Source: Halostagnicola kamekurae (GTDB lineage: Archaea; Halobacteriota; Halobacteria; Halobacteriales; Natrialbaceae). Taken from it: 64,000 bases of DNA. The translations under genes and the position numbers were made by a program. The stretch spans positions 434,001 to 498,000 of the forward strand of contig NZ_FOZS01000002.1 in the NCBI RefSeq assembly GCF_900116205.1, read 5' to 3'. Below the pieces are notes generated by a model. It saw nothing but the letters and a program-made list of their open reading frames with translations, was not told where the DNA came from and made no database searches. This document shows positions 25,050 through 32,647 of the stretch, one piece after another. Position 1 is the stretch's first letter, and each line of letters begins with the position of its first letter.

Positions 25050-25256
25050 ACTAGATAGTGACACACAGAGTGTATAAATCACGGTGTGGAATCTCAACCT
25101 GGTACTGAGCGGTCGATCCGAGGGGAGGATCGACCAGATCCGCGGGGCGATCGCCGTCGATTCCGGCAGGGCGGCGTCGAAAACGGCGGACGGTAGACAG
25201 GTCCGTGCTCCTTTCGTCAAGTTGATAGCGCGAGAGTCCGTCACGTCGACGTGACT

Positions 25257-26297
25257 ATGTCGTCTCTCCCCGCGACGGGTTCGCTATCGGCCGGCGCGCT
25301 CGACCCGAGCGGGTCGCTCGCCGCCGGGACCCCGGCTGCGATCACGTCGCCGATCACGGAACTCGCCCAGACGACGGTCGTCGGATCGTTCACCGTCGTC
25401 AATCTCCTCGCGTGGGTCTCGATCGGTATCTTCGTGCTCGCGTTCGCCCTCGAGTGGCTCGGAGAGATCGATCCGGCCCGGTACGTCGCCGCTGGCGCGT
25501 GGGTGCTATTCGGGCTGTTCTGGCTGTTGATGGCACCGCACTACTACGCGGACGTCCAGAGTCCGTTACAGACGCTGCTCTCGCTCGCCGCCCTCCCGCT
25601 GTGTACCTACGCCGCGTACCTGCTCGTCAACGGTCGAGCGTCGTTGCTCGTGCTCTCGAAGGCGGTCGCGATCATGGGGATCATCTACCTCCCCGCGGAG
25701 ACGATCCCGTTCGTGCGCCGGTGGTTGATCGAGACGACCGCCGCACAGACTCACTACGGGATGGAACTGCTCGGACACAGTCCGGGACTCATCGAGGGGA
25801 GCGCCGGCTACGAGAGCAAGTTCGGTTTCGACCCCGACGAAACCGTCACCGGGCGGACGACCTACATCATCATGGCCTGTACCGGGATCGGGAGCATGGC
25901 GATCTTCGGCGGGCTCATCGGGGCCGTGAAAGCGCCACTCAAACGGAAGGTCGCGGCCTTCGCCGTCGCGATCGGCGTCATCTGGTTCCTCAACCTGATC
26001 CGCAACGTCTTCATCGGCCTCGCCTCGCCGTGGGGCTGGTTCCAGCACGACCCCATCGTCCACGTCATGACGACGTATCTAGGTACCCAACCGGATCGCG
26101 TCTCGTACCTCGTCGCGCACAACTACATCTCCCAACTGGGCTCTGTCATCGCCCTCCTGGGGATCGCCTACCTTCTCATGAAGATTCTCCCCGAGATCCT
26201 CGAGCCGCTCGAGGAGGTCCTGTTTATCATCTCGGGAACCGAGTACGACCTCGAGGAGGCCATCGATGCGGAGAAGCCAGCAGATGCCGACGACTGA
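25257..26297 (+). CDS. artA: Archaeosortase A
   Basis: 346 residues with about eight membrane helices. It contains the archaeosortase/exosortase active site: the nucleophilic Cys208 in YIIMACTGIGS, Arg249 in LNLIRNVFIG, and a downstream His in LVAHNYISQLGS. In Haloferax, ArtA cleaves PGF-CTERM proteins, including the S-layer glycoprotein, and attaches the new C-terminus to a lipid at the outer membrane face. No PGF-CTERM substrate is encoded in this window. The approximately 45-residue N-terminal extension is Ser/Ala/Thr-rich. The ATG at 25257 is two codons inside a GTG start at 25251. The gene overlaps the following phosphoesterase gene. Confidence 0.93.
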   Translation: MSSLPATGSLSAGALDPSGSLAAGTPAAITSPITELAQTTVVGSFTVVNLLAWVSIGIFVLAFALEWLGEIDPARYVAAGAWVLFGLFWLLMAPHYYADVQSPLQTLLSLAALPLCTYAAYLLVNGRASLLVLSKAVAIMGIIYLPAETIPFVRRWLIETTAAQTHYGMELLGHSPGLIEGSAGYESKFGFDPDETVTGRTTYIIMACTGIGSMAIFGGLIGAVKAPLKRKVAAFAVAIGVIWFLNLIRNVFIGLASPWGWFQHDPIVHVMTTYLGTQPDRVSYLVAHNYISQLGSVIALLGIAYLLMKILPEILEPLEEVLFIISGTEYDLEEAIDAEKPADADD

Positions 26298-27157: not shown

Positions 27158-27736
27158 TCAGTCGCTCGTCTCGGATCGATCGTCGTCGGTCGATTCGCCC
27201 TCGGGTGTCGATCCGTCTTCGGTCGCGATCTCGCCGACCTTCTCGTCGACGGTTTCCTCGACCTTCCGCTCGACTTTTTCGTCGACGGTTTCCTCGACTT
27301 TCTCCTCGACCGTCTCGTCCACCGTCTGCTCGACCTTCTGTTCGACCGTTTCGTCGACGGTCTCGTCGACCGTGTCGTCGACTTTATCGACGACGGTCTC
27401 GTCTACTTTCTCGCCGACCTTCTCGTCGACCGTCTCTTCGACTTCTTCCGTTCTGGGCCGTCGATCGACGCGCTCGTTGACGGTCTCGAGCTTGTCGATG
27501 ACCTCGTCGACCTCTCGAGTGAGCGTGTCTTCGACGTTCTGTGTGACCTCCTTGGTCATCCACTCGGGATCGAATCGCGCCATCTTCCAGACCACGTGGA
27601 TCACGTAGGAGACCATCACGCCGAGCCCGAACGCGATACCGACACGGGTCCCGACGAAGTTAAAGAGCACGACCGAAACGAAGATCATCGCGCCGTAGGC
27701 GAGGTCGACCAGAAAATCGACTCGAGACGGGTTCAC
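27158..27736 (-). CDS. Membrane protein with strict valine tetrapeptide repeat
   Basis: 192 residues. Two hydrophobic segments (about 8-30 and 32-50) are followed by a charged helix (60-98) and then a repeat in which valine falls at every fourth position from Val99 to Val167 (18 valines). The repeat unit is D/E-E/x-T/K-V, for example DETV, DEKV and EEKV. A 12-base period underlies it. The tail (170-192) is acidic. Such a strict tetrad is not a heptad or hendecad coiled coil. It may form a right-handed helical bundle or another fibrous structure extending into the cytoplasm. The start codon is GTG (27734-27736). The family is not recognised. Confidence 0.7.
   Translation of the reverse strand: MNPSRVDFLVDLAYGAMIFVSVVLFNFVGTRVGIAFGLGVMVSYVIHVVWKMARFDPEWMTKEVTQNVEDTLTREVDEVIDKLETVNERVDRRPRTEEVEETVDEKVGEKVDETVVDKVDDTVDETVDETVEQKVEQTVDETVEEKVEETVDEKVERKVEETVDEKVGEIATEDGSTPEGESTDDDRSETSD
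27236..27442 (-). repeat. 12-base period coding repeat (tetrapeptide repeat)
   Basis: About seventeen units of 12 bases with the pattern GAG-ACC/AAG-GTC-GAC on the minus strand. They encode the D/E-E-T/K-V tetrads of the membrane protein at 27158-27736. Confidence 0.85.
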
Positions 27737-28913: not shown

Positions 28914-30173
28914 ATGACGAGGGGGATCGGACGCCGAGCATACCTCTCGGCGACGACCGTGGGGGCGGCCGTCGTTCTCGGCGGGTGTGTGGCCACCGGC
29001 GTCTTGAACAACGGCGAGAACGACGAGCGACCTTCGCTGTCAGATCGGACACTGCGGTACGGCGCGGTGCTTCCGCTGTCGGGCGAACTCGAGTCGATGG
29101 GCGAATCGCTCTCGAACGCCGTTTCCCTCCCTACTGCCGAACTCGAGGCGTCGGATCTCGACGTGACGACCGAAACGGAGACCGCCGACTCCGAAACGCT
29201 GCCGGCGTCGGCGGTCGACGCTGCGGCGGCGCTCGTCGAAGACGGATATCCGGCGCTCGTCGGTGCGGCGGCGTCGGGCGTTTCCTTGCAAATGACACAG
29301 CAAGTGACGATTCCCGCTGAGGTCGTGACCTGCTCGCCGGCGAGTACGTCGCCGACGATGTCGATTCTCAACGATCGCGGCTACTCGTTTCGAACCGCGC
29401 CGGACGACTCGCTTCAGGCCGTCGTCGCGGCACAGCTGGCGGCCTCCGAACACGACGCGGCAACCGCTGCGACGCTTTACACGGCCGGCGATTACGGGCG
29501 GCAACTCTCCGGTGCGTTCTCGGCTTCGTTCGACGGCGCGATTCAGCGACAGGTGTCCATTACCGGAGAGCGCGATTCCTACGGCGAACCGCTCGGTCAG
29601 GCGCTTGCCGACGAGCCGGATATCCTCTTTCTCATCTGCTATCCCGAGACAGGGATCGACCTGCTCGAGGAGTATTACGCCGATCATCAGGGAGAGGAGA
29701 CCGTGTTCGTCAGCGATGCGTTACAGGAAAAGACCGTTGTCGAGACCGTCGACGATCCGATGGCCAACGTTTTCGGCACCGCGCCGATGTCGTCCGGGCC
29801 GGGACAGGGCGCGTTCGAATCGCTCTATCGAGAGACGTACGAGACCGATCCGGCGGTGTTCGCGGCGAACACGTACGATGCGGCCGCGACGCTGTTGCTG
29901 GCCAACGCCGCCGCGGGCGAAAACGACGGATCGGCGATCGCAGAACAGATGCGCGAAGTGACCGACGGTGACGGAACGGAAATCATGCCGGGGGAACTCG
30001 CGGACGGAATCGAGCTCGCGGCCACCGGTGACCCGGTTCGGTATCGAGGCGCGGCCGGCGAAATCGAGTTCGACGAAAACGGCAATGGCGGGTCCACCCA
30101 GTACGAGTACTTCCGCTTCGACGACGACGGGATTACCGTTCTCGAGGAGCGGAGCCCGGAGGTATCAGAATGA
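28914..30173 (+). CDS. Tat lipoprotein, periplasmic-binding fold type I (BasB-like chemotaxis binding protein)
   Basis: 419 residues. The signal sequence has IGRRAYLSATTVGAAVVLGGC: twin arginine plus lipobox, so it is Tat-exported and lipid-anchored outside. The mature part has the fold of branched-chain amino acid binding proteins: RYGAVLPLSGELESMGESLS, VGAAASGVSLQ, the ligand-contacting TCSPASTSPTMSI, and TYDAAATLLLANAA. The stop overlaps the start of a transducer gene (ATGA), so the two proteins should be made in equal amounts. In Halobacterium, the BasB/BasT and CosB/CosT pairs sense amino acids and osmolytes in just this layout. The ligand here is unknown, but the Ser/Thr-rich pocket fits an amino acid. 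Confidence 0.85.
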   Translation: MTRGIGRRAYLSATTVGAAVVLGGCVATGVLNNGENDERPSLSDRTLRYGAVLPLSGELESMGESLSNAVSLPTAELEASDLDVTTETETADSETLPASAVDAAAALVEDGYPALVGAAASGVSLQMTQQVTIPAEVVTCSPASTSPTMSILNDRGYSFRTAPDDSLQAVVAAQLAASEHDAATAATLYTAGDYGRQLSGAFSASFDGAIQRQVSITGERDSYGEPLGQALADEPDILFLICYPETGIDLLEEYYADHQGEETVFVSDALQEKTVVETVDDPMANVFGTAPMSSGPGQGAFESLYRETYETDPAVFAANTYDAAATLLLANAAAGENDGSAIAEQMREVTDGDGTEIMPGELADGIELAATGDPVRYRGAAGEIEFDENGNGGSTQYEYFRFDDDGITVLEERSPEVSE

Positions 30174-32647
30174 TCGATACTGCGGACACTGCAGACTCGA
30201 GCAATACTGCCGATTCCGACGGCTCGAGCGGTGCTGCCGAAGATGATCCGAGCGGGATCGTCGGCTCGATCACGAACCAACTCTCGAGTGTCGTTCCGTC
30301 GGCGGTTCGCGGGAATTTCGTCCCTTCGATGATCCGCGGGAGTTTCCGGACGAAGTTCGTCGTCTCGATCCTGTTGATCGTGGTCGTGCTTTCGATCGTC
30401 GGCGGACTGGGATACGTCGACGCCGAGCAAACCGTCGAGAACGACGCCAAGGAGCAACTCACGGCGATGGTGGACATGCACGCGGACTCGATCAACGAGT
30501 GGATGATCTCGATGGAGTCGCACACGCGGTCGGTCTCCTCGTCGTCCGAACTGGCCGGAACCGAGGCCGAGGAGGCCGAGGCGCAGGTAATTCAGCAGCA
30601 GGCGACGCTCCCGGTCGACGTCAGAGGGGTGCACGTAATAGACACCAACGAGAACGAGATCCTGACGAGCACGAACGGAGAGCTTCGGTCGGAGCCGCTA
30701 TCAGCGGTCGACGAACCCTGGACCGAGATCGAACCCGGGGTCGACCTGACGGCAGCAAACGACGTGTGGCACTCGGAGAGCGCCTATCAGTCGGGGACGC
30801 TCGACGATCAGGTGATGTCCTTTGCGAGCCCAGTCGAAGGTGACGAGGCGCGGATCGCCGTCGTCGTCGGCACTATCGAGTACCGCGTGGACGGCCTGAA
30901 ACAGCTCCACGACGATCAGGAGACGATGATCCTCGACACGGACGGCCAGACGGTCCTCGCGAGCGACGACCTCGGCGGCGATCCCGACGAGGACATCATC
31001 GCGGAACTCGGAGCGAAACGCGACGGGACCGAGTTCGACCGCGGCGGCGACGGACTGGTCACCGCCTACGCCGCGACTGCGGACAACAACTGGGTCGCCG
31101 TGACCACCGTTCCCGAGGAGCAGGCGTTCGCGGCGAGTAACGCGGTCGGCTGGGCCGTGCTCTTCGTTATCGGCGCGGCGCTGATATCGCTGCTCGTTGG
31201 GGGATACTTGCTCGCCCGACAGACCGTGACGCCGCTGGAGGACCTTCGGGATCGCGCCGAGCGGATGAAAAACGGCGACCTATCGGTCGATCTGGAGACG
31301 GATCGGATCGACGAGGTGGGCCAACTCTACCGGGCGTTCGACGAGATGCGGGACACGCTCAGGGCACAGATCACCGAAGCCGAGGAGGCACAGGCCGAGG
31401 CCGAAGCGGCGAAAGTCGAGGCCGAGGAAGCACAGGCCGAAGCCGAAGCAGAACGCGAGCGCGTCAAGAACGTGATGAACGAACTCCGGCGCGCGGCGGA
31501 TCGGTACGGGACGACGATGCGCGCGGCAGCCGAGGGCGACCTTACCGTCCGAGCCGACGTTCGGACCGACAACGAGCAGATGGCGGCGATCGGCCGCGAG
31601 TTCAACGAGATGTTAGCGGAGATCGATCGCGCCGTCGCGGAGGTCAAACGGTTCGCCGAGGACGTGCGCGCGGCCAGCGAGCAGGTCGACGCCTCCAGCG
31701 CGGAGGTCAAGCGAGCCAGCGAACAGGTCGCCGAATCGATTCAGGAGATCTCCGACAGCTCCGAGCGACAGAGCGAGAAGCTCCAGACCGTCGAATCGGA
31801 GCTTGCAGGCCTCTCCGCAAGTACCGAAGAGATCGCCTCGACGGCCACCCAGGTCGAAGGTGTCGCAGAGCGAACCGTCGACTCGAGTCACCGGGGCCGA
31901 GAAGCGGCCGAGGAGGCGATTTCGGAGATGGAAGACGTCGAGACGGAGGCCGACCGAGCCGTCGAGACGATCCGGTCGCTCGAGGCCGAAGTCGAACAGA
32001 TAGACGAACTCGTCGAGGCGATCTCCGACGTGGCAGACCAGACCAACTTGCTCGCGCTGAACGCGAGCATCGAGGCGGCTCGAGCCGGTAACGGCGGCAA
32101 TTCCGACGGGTTCGGAACCGTCGCCCAGGAGATCAAGAGTCTCTCGGCAGACGCCAAGGAGACGGCGGCCGAAATCGACGCGCGCATCGAGTCGATCCGC
32201 GAAAAGACCGACGAGTCCGTCGGCGTCGTCGAGAAAACGAGGGATCGCGTCGAACAGGGGACAGCGGCCGTCGAGCCGGCGGTCGAATCGCTAACTGAAA
32301 TCGCCGAGTACGCCGAAGAGACGAACGACGGCGTGCAGGAAATCTCGGCCGCGACCGACCAGCAGGCCGACGCCACGGAGCAGATAGTCACCGCGGTCGA
32401 CGAAATCGCGACGAGCAGCGAGGACGCCGCGGCGGAAGCCGGCAACGTCTCCGCGGCCGCCGAAGAGCAGACGGCCTCGCTCACGGGCGTCACCGAGAAC
32501 GTAAACAGCCTCGCAGAGCAGGCCGCTGAGTTGTCGGAGACCCTCGAGCGCTTCGAGACGGCGGCCGGAACGCCCGACGGCGATCGCGACGGTCACTCGA
32601 GGCCGTCGGCGGCGACGGACGGAGGGGACGGCACGCTCGGCAGGTAA
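30170..32647 (+). CDS. Methyl-accepting chemotaxis transducer (BasT/CosT-like)
   Basis: 825 residues. An acidic N-terminal stretch leads to a membrane helix (KFVVSILLIVVVLSIVGGLG), then an extracellular double-Cache-like sensor domain (about 90-315). A second helix (VLFVIGAALISLLVGGYLLA) is followed by a HAMP domain (EDLRDRAERMKNGDLSVDLE), an Ala/Glu coiled coil, a second HAMP (RAAAEGDLTVRADV), and the cytoplasmic signalling hairpin with the tip DQTNLLALNASIEAARAG. It should signal to CheA/CheW and the archaellum. Paired by a 4-base overlap with the binding lipoprotein, it probably reads that protein's occupancy. Confidence 0.92.
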   Translation: MIDTADTADSSNTADSDGSSGAAEDDPSGIVGSITNQLSSVVPSAVRGNFVPSMIRGSFRTKFVVSILLIVVVLSIVGGLGYVDAEQTVENDAKEQLTAMVDMHADSINEWMISMESHTRSVSSSSELAGTEAEEAEAQVIQQQATLPVDVRGVHVIDTNENEILTSTNGELRSEPLSAVDEPWTEIEPGVDLTAANDVWHSESAYQSGTLDDQVMSFASPVEGDEARIAVVVGTIEYRVDGLKQLHDDQETMILDTDGQTVLASDDLGGDPDEDIIAELGAKRDGTEFDRGGDGLVTAYAATADNNWVAVTTVPEEQAFAASNAVGWAVLFVIGAALISLLVGGYLLARQTVTPLEDLRDRAERMKNGDLSVDLETDRIDEVGQLYRAFDEMRDTLRAQITEAEEAQAEAEAAKVEAEEAQAEAEAERERVKNVMNELRRAADRYGTTMRAAAEGDLTVRADVRTDNEQMAAIGREFNEMLAEIDRAVAEVKRFAEDVRAASEQVDASSAEVKRASEQVAESIQEISDSSERQSEKLQTVESELAGLSASTEEIASTATQVEGVAERTVDSSHRGREAAEEAISEMEDVETEADRAVETIRSLEAEVEQIDELVEAISDVADQTNLLALNASIEAARAGNGGNSDGFGTVAQEIKSLSADAKETAAEIDARIESIREKTDESVGVVEKTRDRVEQGTAAVEPAVESLTEIAEYAEETNDGVQEISAATDQQADATEQIVTAVDEIATSSEDAAAEAGNVSAAAEEQTASLTGVTENVNSLAEQAAELSETLERFETAAGTPDGDRDGHSRPSAATDGGDGTLGR

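What the first reader, a model, noticed from the sequence alone, without database searches (positions are those of the whole stretch)
27158..27736. Strict valine-every-fourth-residue repeat in a membrane protein
Eighteen valines lie exactly four residues apart (Val99-Val167) with the consensus D/E-E-T/K-V, encoded by a 12-base period. Coiled coils have periods of 7, 11 or 15; a strict 4-residue period implies a hydrophobic stripe that winds around an alpha helix or a different fibrous fold. It follows two membrane helices, so it would project as a charged stalk from the membrane. I know of no named family with this repeat.
Basis: seen in the sequence. Interest (0 to 1): 0.57.

Follow-up and report, generated by a model that had tools for sequence, protein, structure and literature searches.

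The report
Valine-every-fourth stalk in haloarchaeal proteins
Salt-loving archaea carry an unnamed membrane protein whose tail places a valine at exactly every fourth position, a spacing no known helical fibre is thought to tolerate, and the gene usually sits beside a phosphate transporter.

Summary
The minus-strand gene at 27158-27736 encodes 192 aa: a two-helix membrane hairpin, a linker with ordinary helix period (3.65), then 18 valines exactly four apart (Val99-Val167). In 20,000 shuffles the longest run was 7. It is a family trait, not a local minisatellite. The conserved hairpin was found in 207 of 292 haloarchaeal genomes, and 62 of 71 inspected protein rows have at least 8 hydrophobics at spacing 4, up to 56 in a row. 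Valine is kept while its codons vary. Repeat number varies by whole tetrads, and spacing 3 is tolerated but 5 is not. A period of 4.0 lies outside the range a coiled-coil paper calls accessible. AlphaFold gives no confident fold. No Pfam or NCBIfam model matches above cut-off; RefSeq says 'hypothetical protein'. New lead: a PiT phosphate-transporter gene lies beside the family's gene in 48 of 67 loci, in three arrangements, though not in the window. Best reading: a membrane-anchored accessory protein, usually PiT-linked, with a cytoplasmic tail of variable length, probably helical. A disordered chain with evenly spaced valine stickers is nearly as likely.

The parts
27158..27736 (-). whole gene, 192 aa, GTG start, stop at 27158-27160
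   Evidence: relatives in 47 of 61 genomes and 207 of 292 genomes
27554..27736 (-). conserved N-terminal domain, residues 1-61: two membrane helices and the motif WKMARFDPEWMT
   Evidence: 15 invariant columns in 48 sequences; helices 3-27 and 30-54 in AlphaFold; hydropathy
27443..27553 (-). linker, residues 62-98, ordinary helical period (3.65 over residues 62-95)
   Evidence: Fourier; AlphaFold helix 65-91 at low confidence
27452..27475 (-). ERVDRRPR motif, residues 88-95; before the longest array here, after it in most relatives that have it
   Evidence: before the array in 9, after it in 27, absent in 32 of 68
27236..27442 (-). tetrad array, Val99-Val167, 18 valines at exact spacing 4, 12-base DNA period
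27161..27235 (-). acidic tail after the array, residues 168-192

Best explanation
The gene encodes a member of an undescribed, apparently haloarchaea-restricted family of small membrane proteins. SHOWN: a conserved hairpin of two membrane helices with a fixed motif (WKMARFDPxWMT), followed by a hydrophobic array at period 4 whose length changes by whole tetrads while valine is held by purifying selection; in most loci examined the gene stands beside a PiT-type phosphate transporter. INFERRED: the hairpin anchors the protein, probably next to a PiT permease, with both ends in the cytoplasm. The tail is an alpha-helical stalk or tether of variable length that associates with copies of itself or with a cytoplasmic partner. 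Its valine stripe drifts about 37 degrees per tetrad and wraps the helix every 9-10 tetrads, so it cannot form a long regular coiled coil of known kind. Either the helices wrap in an unusually tight right-handed way, or each helix makes contacts on changing sides and so builds a bundle or mesh. The likely role is accessory: clustering or regulating the transporter. For the window's own copy, which is not beside PiT, the role is inferred from the family alone.
For: Conservation of period: after a Val in the tail, +4 is V/I/L/M in 89.7% of cases, +3 in 6.0%, +5 in 0.6% (68 proteins). Selection: from one Val to position +4 the codon is identical 1145 times, a synonymous Val codon 603 times, a different residue 346 times. 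Helix-like tolerance: spacing 3 occurs 201 times against 8 for spacing 5, and all eight 5-spacings look to lie outside the regular arrays by their printed contexts. One relative, L129, has a unit of spacings 4,4,3,4 and period 3.75, others lie between 3.85 and 4.0, and the window's linker has period 3.65. Register kept: the distance from the WMT motif to the RRPR motif runs from 27 to 190 aa and is 3 modulo 4 in 19 of 27. L034 and L037 have identical N-termini and differ by exactly 16 aa. PiT link: PiT within 730 bp in 48 of 67 loci, in three arrangements (23 same strand downstream, 20 divergent upstream, 5 opposite strand downstream), against 19, 9, 8, 8 and 7 for the next neighbours tested. 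PiT identity: PF01384 in 7 of 7 scanned; RefSeq names it in 3 of 3 annotated plasmid regions opened, of 8 plasmid records matched.
Against: AlphaFold gives low confidence and much coil in the arrays of two members, with only 10 and 8 sequences in the alignments. Mean helix propensity of the arrays is poor: median 0.52 kcal/mol per residue, against 0.41 for the cytoplasmic body and 0.29 for one coil of the Htr transducer in the same window. Beta-branched Val and Thr dominate two of the four positions, and Gly stands at 17% of one. A Crick calculation gives a helix curvature radius of 12-18 Angstrom for a regular 4.0 coil, against 74-111 for heptads. The PiT neighbour is absent in 19 of 67 loci, among them the window and three close relatives, L031, L070 and L071. 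All 292 genomes have PiT but only 207 have a match to this family, so PiT does not need it. The N-terminal tree is poorly resolved.
Confidence: 0.42

Rival explanations
1. The array is an intrinsically disordered, acidic cytoplasmic tether in which evenly spaced valines act as weak stickers and charged residues as spacers. In molar KCl it collapses or condenses, holding transporters or partners together.
For: AlphaFold pLDDT about 34-47 in the arrays; low helix propensity; Gly, Ser and Thr frequent; length varies freely between close relatives; net acidic tail, 51 D+E against 17 K+R in the window.
Against: A disordered sticker chain has no reason to accept spacing 3 (201 cases, 116 of them near the RRPR motif) and reject spacing 5 (8 cases), nor to include a relative with a 15-residue pattern (L129) and a linker of helix period 3.65. 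AlphaFold had few sequences.
Confidence: 0.33
2. The array is a new regular fold set by the 4-residue period itself: a very tightly wound right-handed helix assembly, a helix underwound to about 4 residues per turn, or a non-helical tetrapeptide fibre.
For: Exact period 4.0 over up to 56 tetrads, Fourier 4.0. Valine tetrads recur in an unrelated phage family next to DUF6745. A solved chain, 9ikm, is a tetrapeptide repeat.
Against: Geometry is severe for a regular alpha-helical version. The 9ikm repeat has a different composition. No solved structure clearly of a Val tetrad array was found by sequence; whether the P230 stretch is ordered in its entries was not checked.
Confidence: 0.17
3. The period is only a neutral 12-base minisatellite in DNA; the protein pattern has no function.
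For: The DNA array is a tandem repeat, and copy number varies.
Against: Synonymous changes at Val outnumber replacements 603 to 346, whereas adjacent-tetrad comparisons at the other three positions show 1076-1372 replacements against 192-409 synonymous changes (which looked only inside runs already chosen as hydrophobic). Mean identity of neighbouring 12-mers in the window's tail is only 0.55.
Confidence: 0.05

Closest known systems
Right-handed alpha-helical coiled coils: hendecad 11/3, pentadecad 15/4, YadA 19/5
   Same: Hydrophobic positions spaced 4 and 3; relative L129 has a 15-residue unit of spacings 4,4,3,4 and Fourier period 3.75
   Different: Here the period is 4.0. PMC4786415 (passages) puts the expected upper limit near 3.9, the most extreme known case at 3.8, and says 4.0 is not in the accessible range
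Alpha/beta coiled coils with beta-layers (PMC4786415)
   Same: A periodicity outside the alpha-helical range in a fibrous protein
   Different: Those arise from insertions of 2 or 6 residues into heptads and form hexads or nonads (abstract start, passages); here the array spacings are all 4
PhoU_div / DUF47 / PitR-type PiT accessory proteins
   Same: Gene beside a PiT phosphate transporter (S. aureus pitR next to pitA, passages of PMC11705898)
   Different: PF01865 is not among the window protein's Pfam matches. PF01865 itself was found in 7 of 59 distinct haloarchaeal genomes, with no clear complement to this family
DUF6745 phage proteins (PF20530)
   Same: Strict valine tetrads such as VRDSVWDSVGAS upstream of the domain in L134, L141, L196
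   Different: Different domain, no membrane hairpin seen, W/R/G/D/S spacers; similarity is in the repeat only
Plasmodium P230 VGEE repeat and the TLP-4 tetrapeptide chain (9ikm)
   Same: Four-residue repeats; P230 has V-G-E-E tetrads
   Different: Unrelated proteins; the TLP-4 repeat is S-X-T-A with an unnamed residue X. Its source as a glycan-coated freshwater fibril is recalled; only a reference-list title was seen

Membership tests
alpha-helical coiled coil | hydrophobic period between about 3.33 and 3.9 residues per turn | tested here: not met
   array 4.0; the linker (3.65) and relatives L129 (3.75) and L038 (3.85) meet it; limits from passages of PMC4786415
alpha-helical coiled coil | confident helical prediction | tested here: inconclusive
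   pLDDT about 34-47 in the arrays, 10 and 8 sequences
alpha-helical coiled coil | oligomeric knobs-into-holes packing | not testable with these tools
   only monomers can be predicted here
PhoU_div (PF01865) PiT accessory protein | match to the family profile | tested here: not met
   not among the Pfam matches up to E 1
PhoU_div (PF01865) PiT accessory protein | gene beside a PiT gene | tested here: inconclusive
   met in 48 of 67 family loci, not in the window or its close relatives L031, L070, L071
MT0933-like antitoxin (PF14013) | Pfam gathering score 27 | tested here: not met
   24.3 bits, over residues 76-126
DUF445 (PF04286) | Pfam gathering score 33.8 | tested here: not met
   18.7 bits
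any named NCBIfam family | curated cut-off | tested here: not met
   best 15.6 bits against 100 for GvpQ

The most novel reading that the evidence does not exclude
The tails form a regular fold set by a true period of 4.0 (a right-handed helical assembly beyond the accepted limit for coiled coils, or a helix underwound to 4 residues per turn), made and lengthened tetrad by tetrad in most haloarchaea and arrived at independently in DUF6745 phage proteins.
Probability: 0.2. Interest if true: 0.82.

Novelty: new variant of a known kind. Interest (0 to 1): 0.58.

Why it matters
A published estimate puts the upper limit for hydrophobic periodicity in helical coiled coils near 3.9. Here is a conserved natural family with up to about 220 residues at exactly 4.0, and a relative at 3.75, so the limit can be tested with natural sequences. 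The family matched in about seven in ten haloarchaeal genomes sampled, is unnamed, and usually sits beside a phosphate transporter, which points to an undescribed transporter accessory protein.

Tried and rejected
Pfam, NCBIfam and PHROGs on the whole protein: only sub-threshold matches in Pfam and NCBIfam; PHROG 36210 (E 2.3e-10) matches the repeat alone, residues 96-129, a 54-aa profile of unknown function. PDB by sequence: the window protein's best match is a ribosomal bL17 C-terminal stretch at E 0.019; a profile of the N-terminal domain gives none. Window neighbours as functional clues: the window's own neighbours (metallophosphoesterase, metallo-beta-lactamase fold, Htr) recur almost only in close relatives. 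PhoU_div replacement idea: PF01865 was found in 2 of 21 and 5 of 40 genomes (two genomes shared, 59 distinct); it is in 2 of 20 genomes without a match to this family and 3 of 20 with one, so there is no complementary pattern and the idea is not supported. PiT co-occurrence: useless, since all 292 genomes have PiT. AlphaFold twice: no confident array structure, so no fold search was run. Literature: no paper found naming a 4-residue hydrophobic period or this family in searches; PiT searches gave nothing on it in their listings; DUF6745 none. The library lacks most subscription journals and all preprints.

Caveats on counts: one search used 71 rows, including two duplicate genomes (L031/L072 and L037/L087) and two second copies (L101_1, L118_1); its spacing totals leave out L072, L087 and L110. 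Searches use 68 rows (L031, L072, L087 dropped; L110 is the window's own copy). One search uses 67 loci (second copies and L072, L087 dropped). Loci L070-L129 were chosen by me from the listed hits to spread over genera, not at random. One search restricted itself to runs already hydrophobic, so one search is the unbiased version.

Full report
CHECK. The minus-strand ORF 27158-27736 gives 192 aa with valines at 99, 103 ... 167, eighteen at exact spacing 4; shuffling residues 61-192 20,000 times gave at most 7. Tandem Repeats Finder sees the 12-base array at 27229-27442. In the window's genome the GT-every-12-bases pattern matches in 7 overlapping places on one strand, as expected from this one run, and the reversed control gives none. 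A Fourier scan gives 4.0 for residues 96-170 and 3.65 for residues 62-95.

FAMILY. With the whole protein 47 of 61 genomes matched; with the first 79 residues 207 of 292 genomes of the class matched. With a profile of the N-terminal domain 20 of 157 genomes of the phylum matched, all 20 in the window's order. The closest named record is Halostagnicola sp. A56 (L031). Forty-eight N-termini share 15 invariant columns. RefSeq calls the protein 'hypothetical protein' in the three plasmid regions opened. Pfam and NCBIfam have no match above cut-off for the window protein, and Pfam gives none at E 0.1 for its first 62 residues, with only weak scattered matches among the 48 N-termini.

THE PERIOD IS THE CONSERVED THING. 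Of 71 rows, 62 have at least eight V/I/L/M/A at exact spacing 4; the median is 21 and the maximum 56, in L124, where Ala takes many of the positions. Among 2265 V/I/L/M spacings 1916 are 4, 199 are 3 and 8 are 5. Within the longest runs the register reads V (94%), then E/G/S/D, E/K, T (62%). From each Val to position +4 (68 proteins) the codon is the same 1145 times, synonymous 603 times and non-Val 346 times. Array length varies by whole tetrads: L034 and L037 share an identical N-terminus and differ by 16 aa; the WMT-to-RRPR distance ranges from 27 to 190 aa and is 3 modulo 4 in 19 of 27. The RRPR motif lies after the longest array in 27, before it in 9 and is absent in 32 of 68, so arrays have grown at different places.

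WHY IT IS ODD. The eLife paper on alpha/beta coiled coils (PMC4786415, passages) takes 3.63 residues per turn for the free helix, expects an upper limit near 3.9, gives 3.8 in YadA as the most extreme, and states that 4.0 is outside the accessible range. My Crick calculation for period 4.0 gives a right-handed superhelix of 39 residues per turn with helix curvature radius 12-18 Angstrom, against 74-111 for heptads and 51-77 for 19/5. On a straight helix the stripe drifts 36.7 degrees per tetrad and wraps in 9.8 tetrads.

HELIX OR NOT. For a helix: spacing 3 is tolerated and 5 is not, the linker is at 3.65 and relative L129 at 3.75. Against: AlphaFold confidence in the arrays is about 34-47, with coil predominant in the window and mixed coil and helix in L037; helix propensity is poor, and Val plus Thr dominate two of the four positions. 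I judge a helical stalk somewhat more likely than a disordered sticker chain, and a true new fold possible.

NEIGHBOURS. Within about 5 kb of 67 loci, a PiT phosphate transporter is found in 48, all within 730 bp: 23 downstream on the same strand, 20 divergent upstream, 5 downstream on the opposite strand (gaps are measured to the aligned part of PiT). A universal stress protein gene is found in 19; the next neighbours tested in 9, 8, 8 and 7. Seven of seven PiT neighbours scanned match PF01384, and three of three stress-protein neighbours match PF00582. The genomes searched mostly hold two to six PiT genes, so by my estimate a random gene would have one this close about 1% of the time or less; the loci are not independent, but the three arrangements and eight parsimony changes of the PiT state on a poorly resolved tree argue against one frozen inheritance. 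The window's copy and its close relatives L031, L070 and L071 have no PiT beside them. So the PiT role is a family inference.

RECURRENCE. Many other pattern hits are low-complexity or possibly alternate-frame sequence. A PDB search with one such array also brought up a V-G-E-E tetrad stretch in the Plasmodium P230 sequence.

VERDICT. Real, conserved, selected and unnamed; the structural reading is open and testable, and the transporter link is the best lead to function.

Noticed in passing
L134:1005-2261, L141:7912-9369, L196:6414-7685, L222:9957-10856: Phage contig proteins with strict valine tetrads (for example VRDSVWDSVGAS, VRSQVASQVESQ) upstream of DUF6745 (PF20530; matched in L134, L141 and L196, L222 not scanned); no paper with that name was found in the library.
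   Followed up: partly
L171:13283-14346: Five short ORFs in a row in a viral contig, each with V-x-S-A/S tetrads and similar endings such as SSNFERWIE; one of them was scanned and matched no Pfam family at E 0.01.
   Followed up: no
window 28914-32647: A periplasmic-binding-type protein (PF13458) overlapping the start of an Htr-like transducer (HAMP, MCPsignal); resembles the BasB/BasT pairing, which is recalled.
   Followed up: no
window 25251-26297: Polytopic membrane protein that looks to me like an archaeosortase from memory; no Pfam match at E 0.001.
   Followed up: no
L101 and L118: Two copies of the family in one genome: a short one between HisA and PiT genes, and a second copy with a long array a few kb away.
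   Followed up: partly
window residues 96-129 of the gene (27350-27451): PHROG 36210, a 54-aa family of unknown function, matches the repeat at E 2.3e-10; a virus protein with tetrads may exist.
   Followed up: no
G047:C1:133259-133414: A distant second match to the N-terminal profile (E 5.3e-5) with an open frame of 326 aa; possible divergent paralogue.
   Followed up: no
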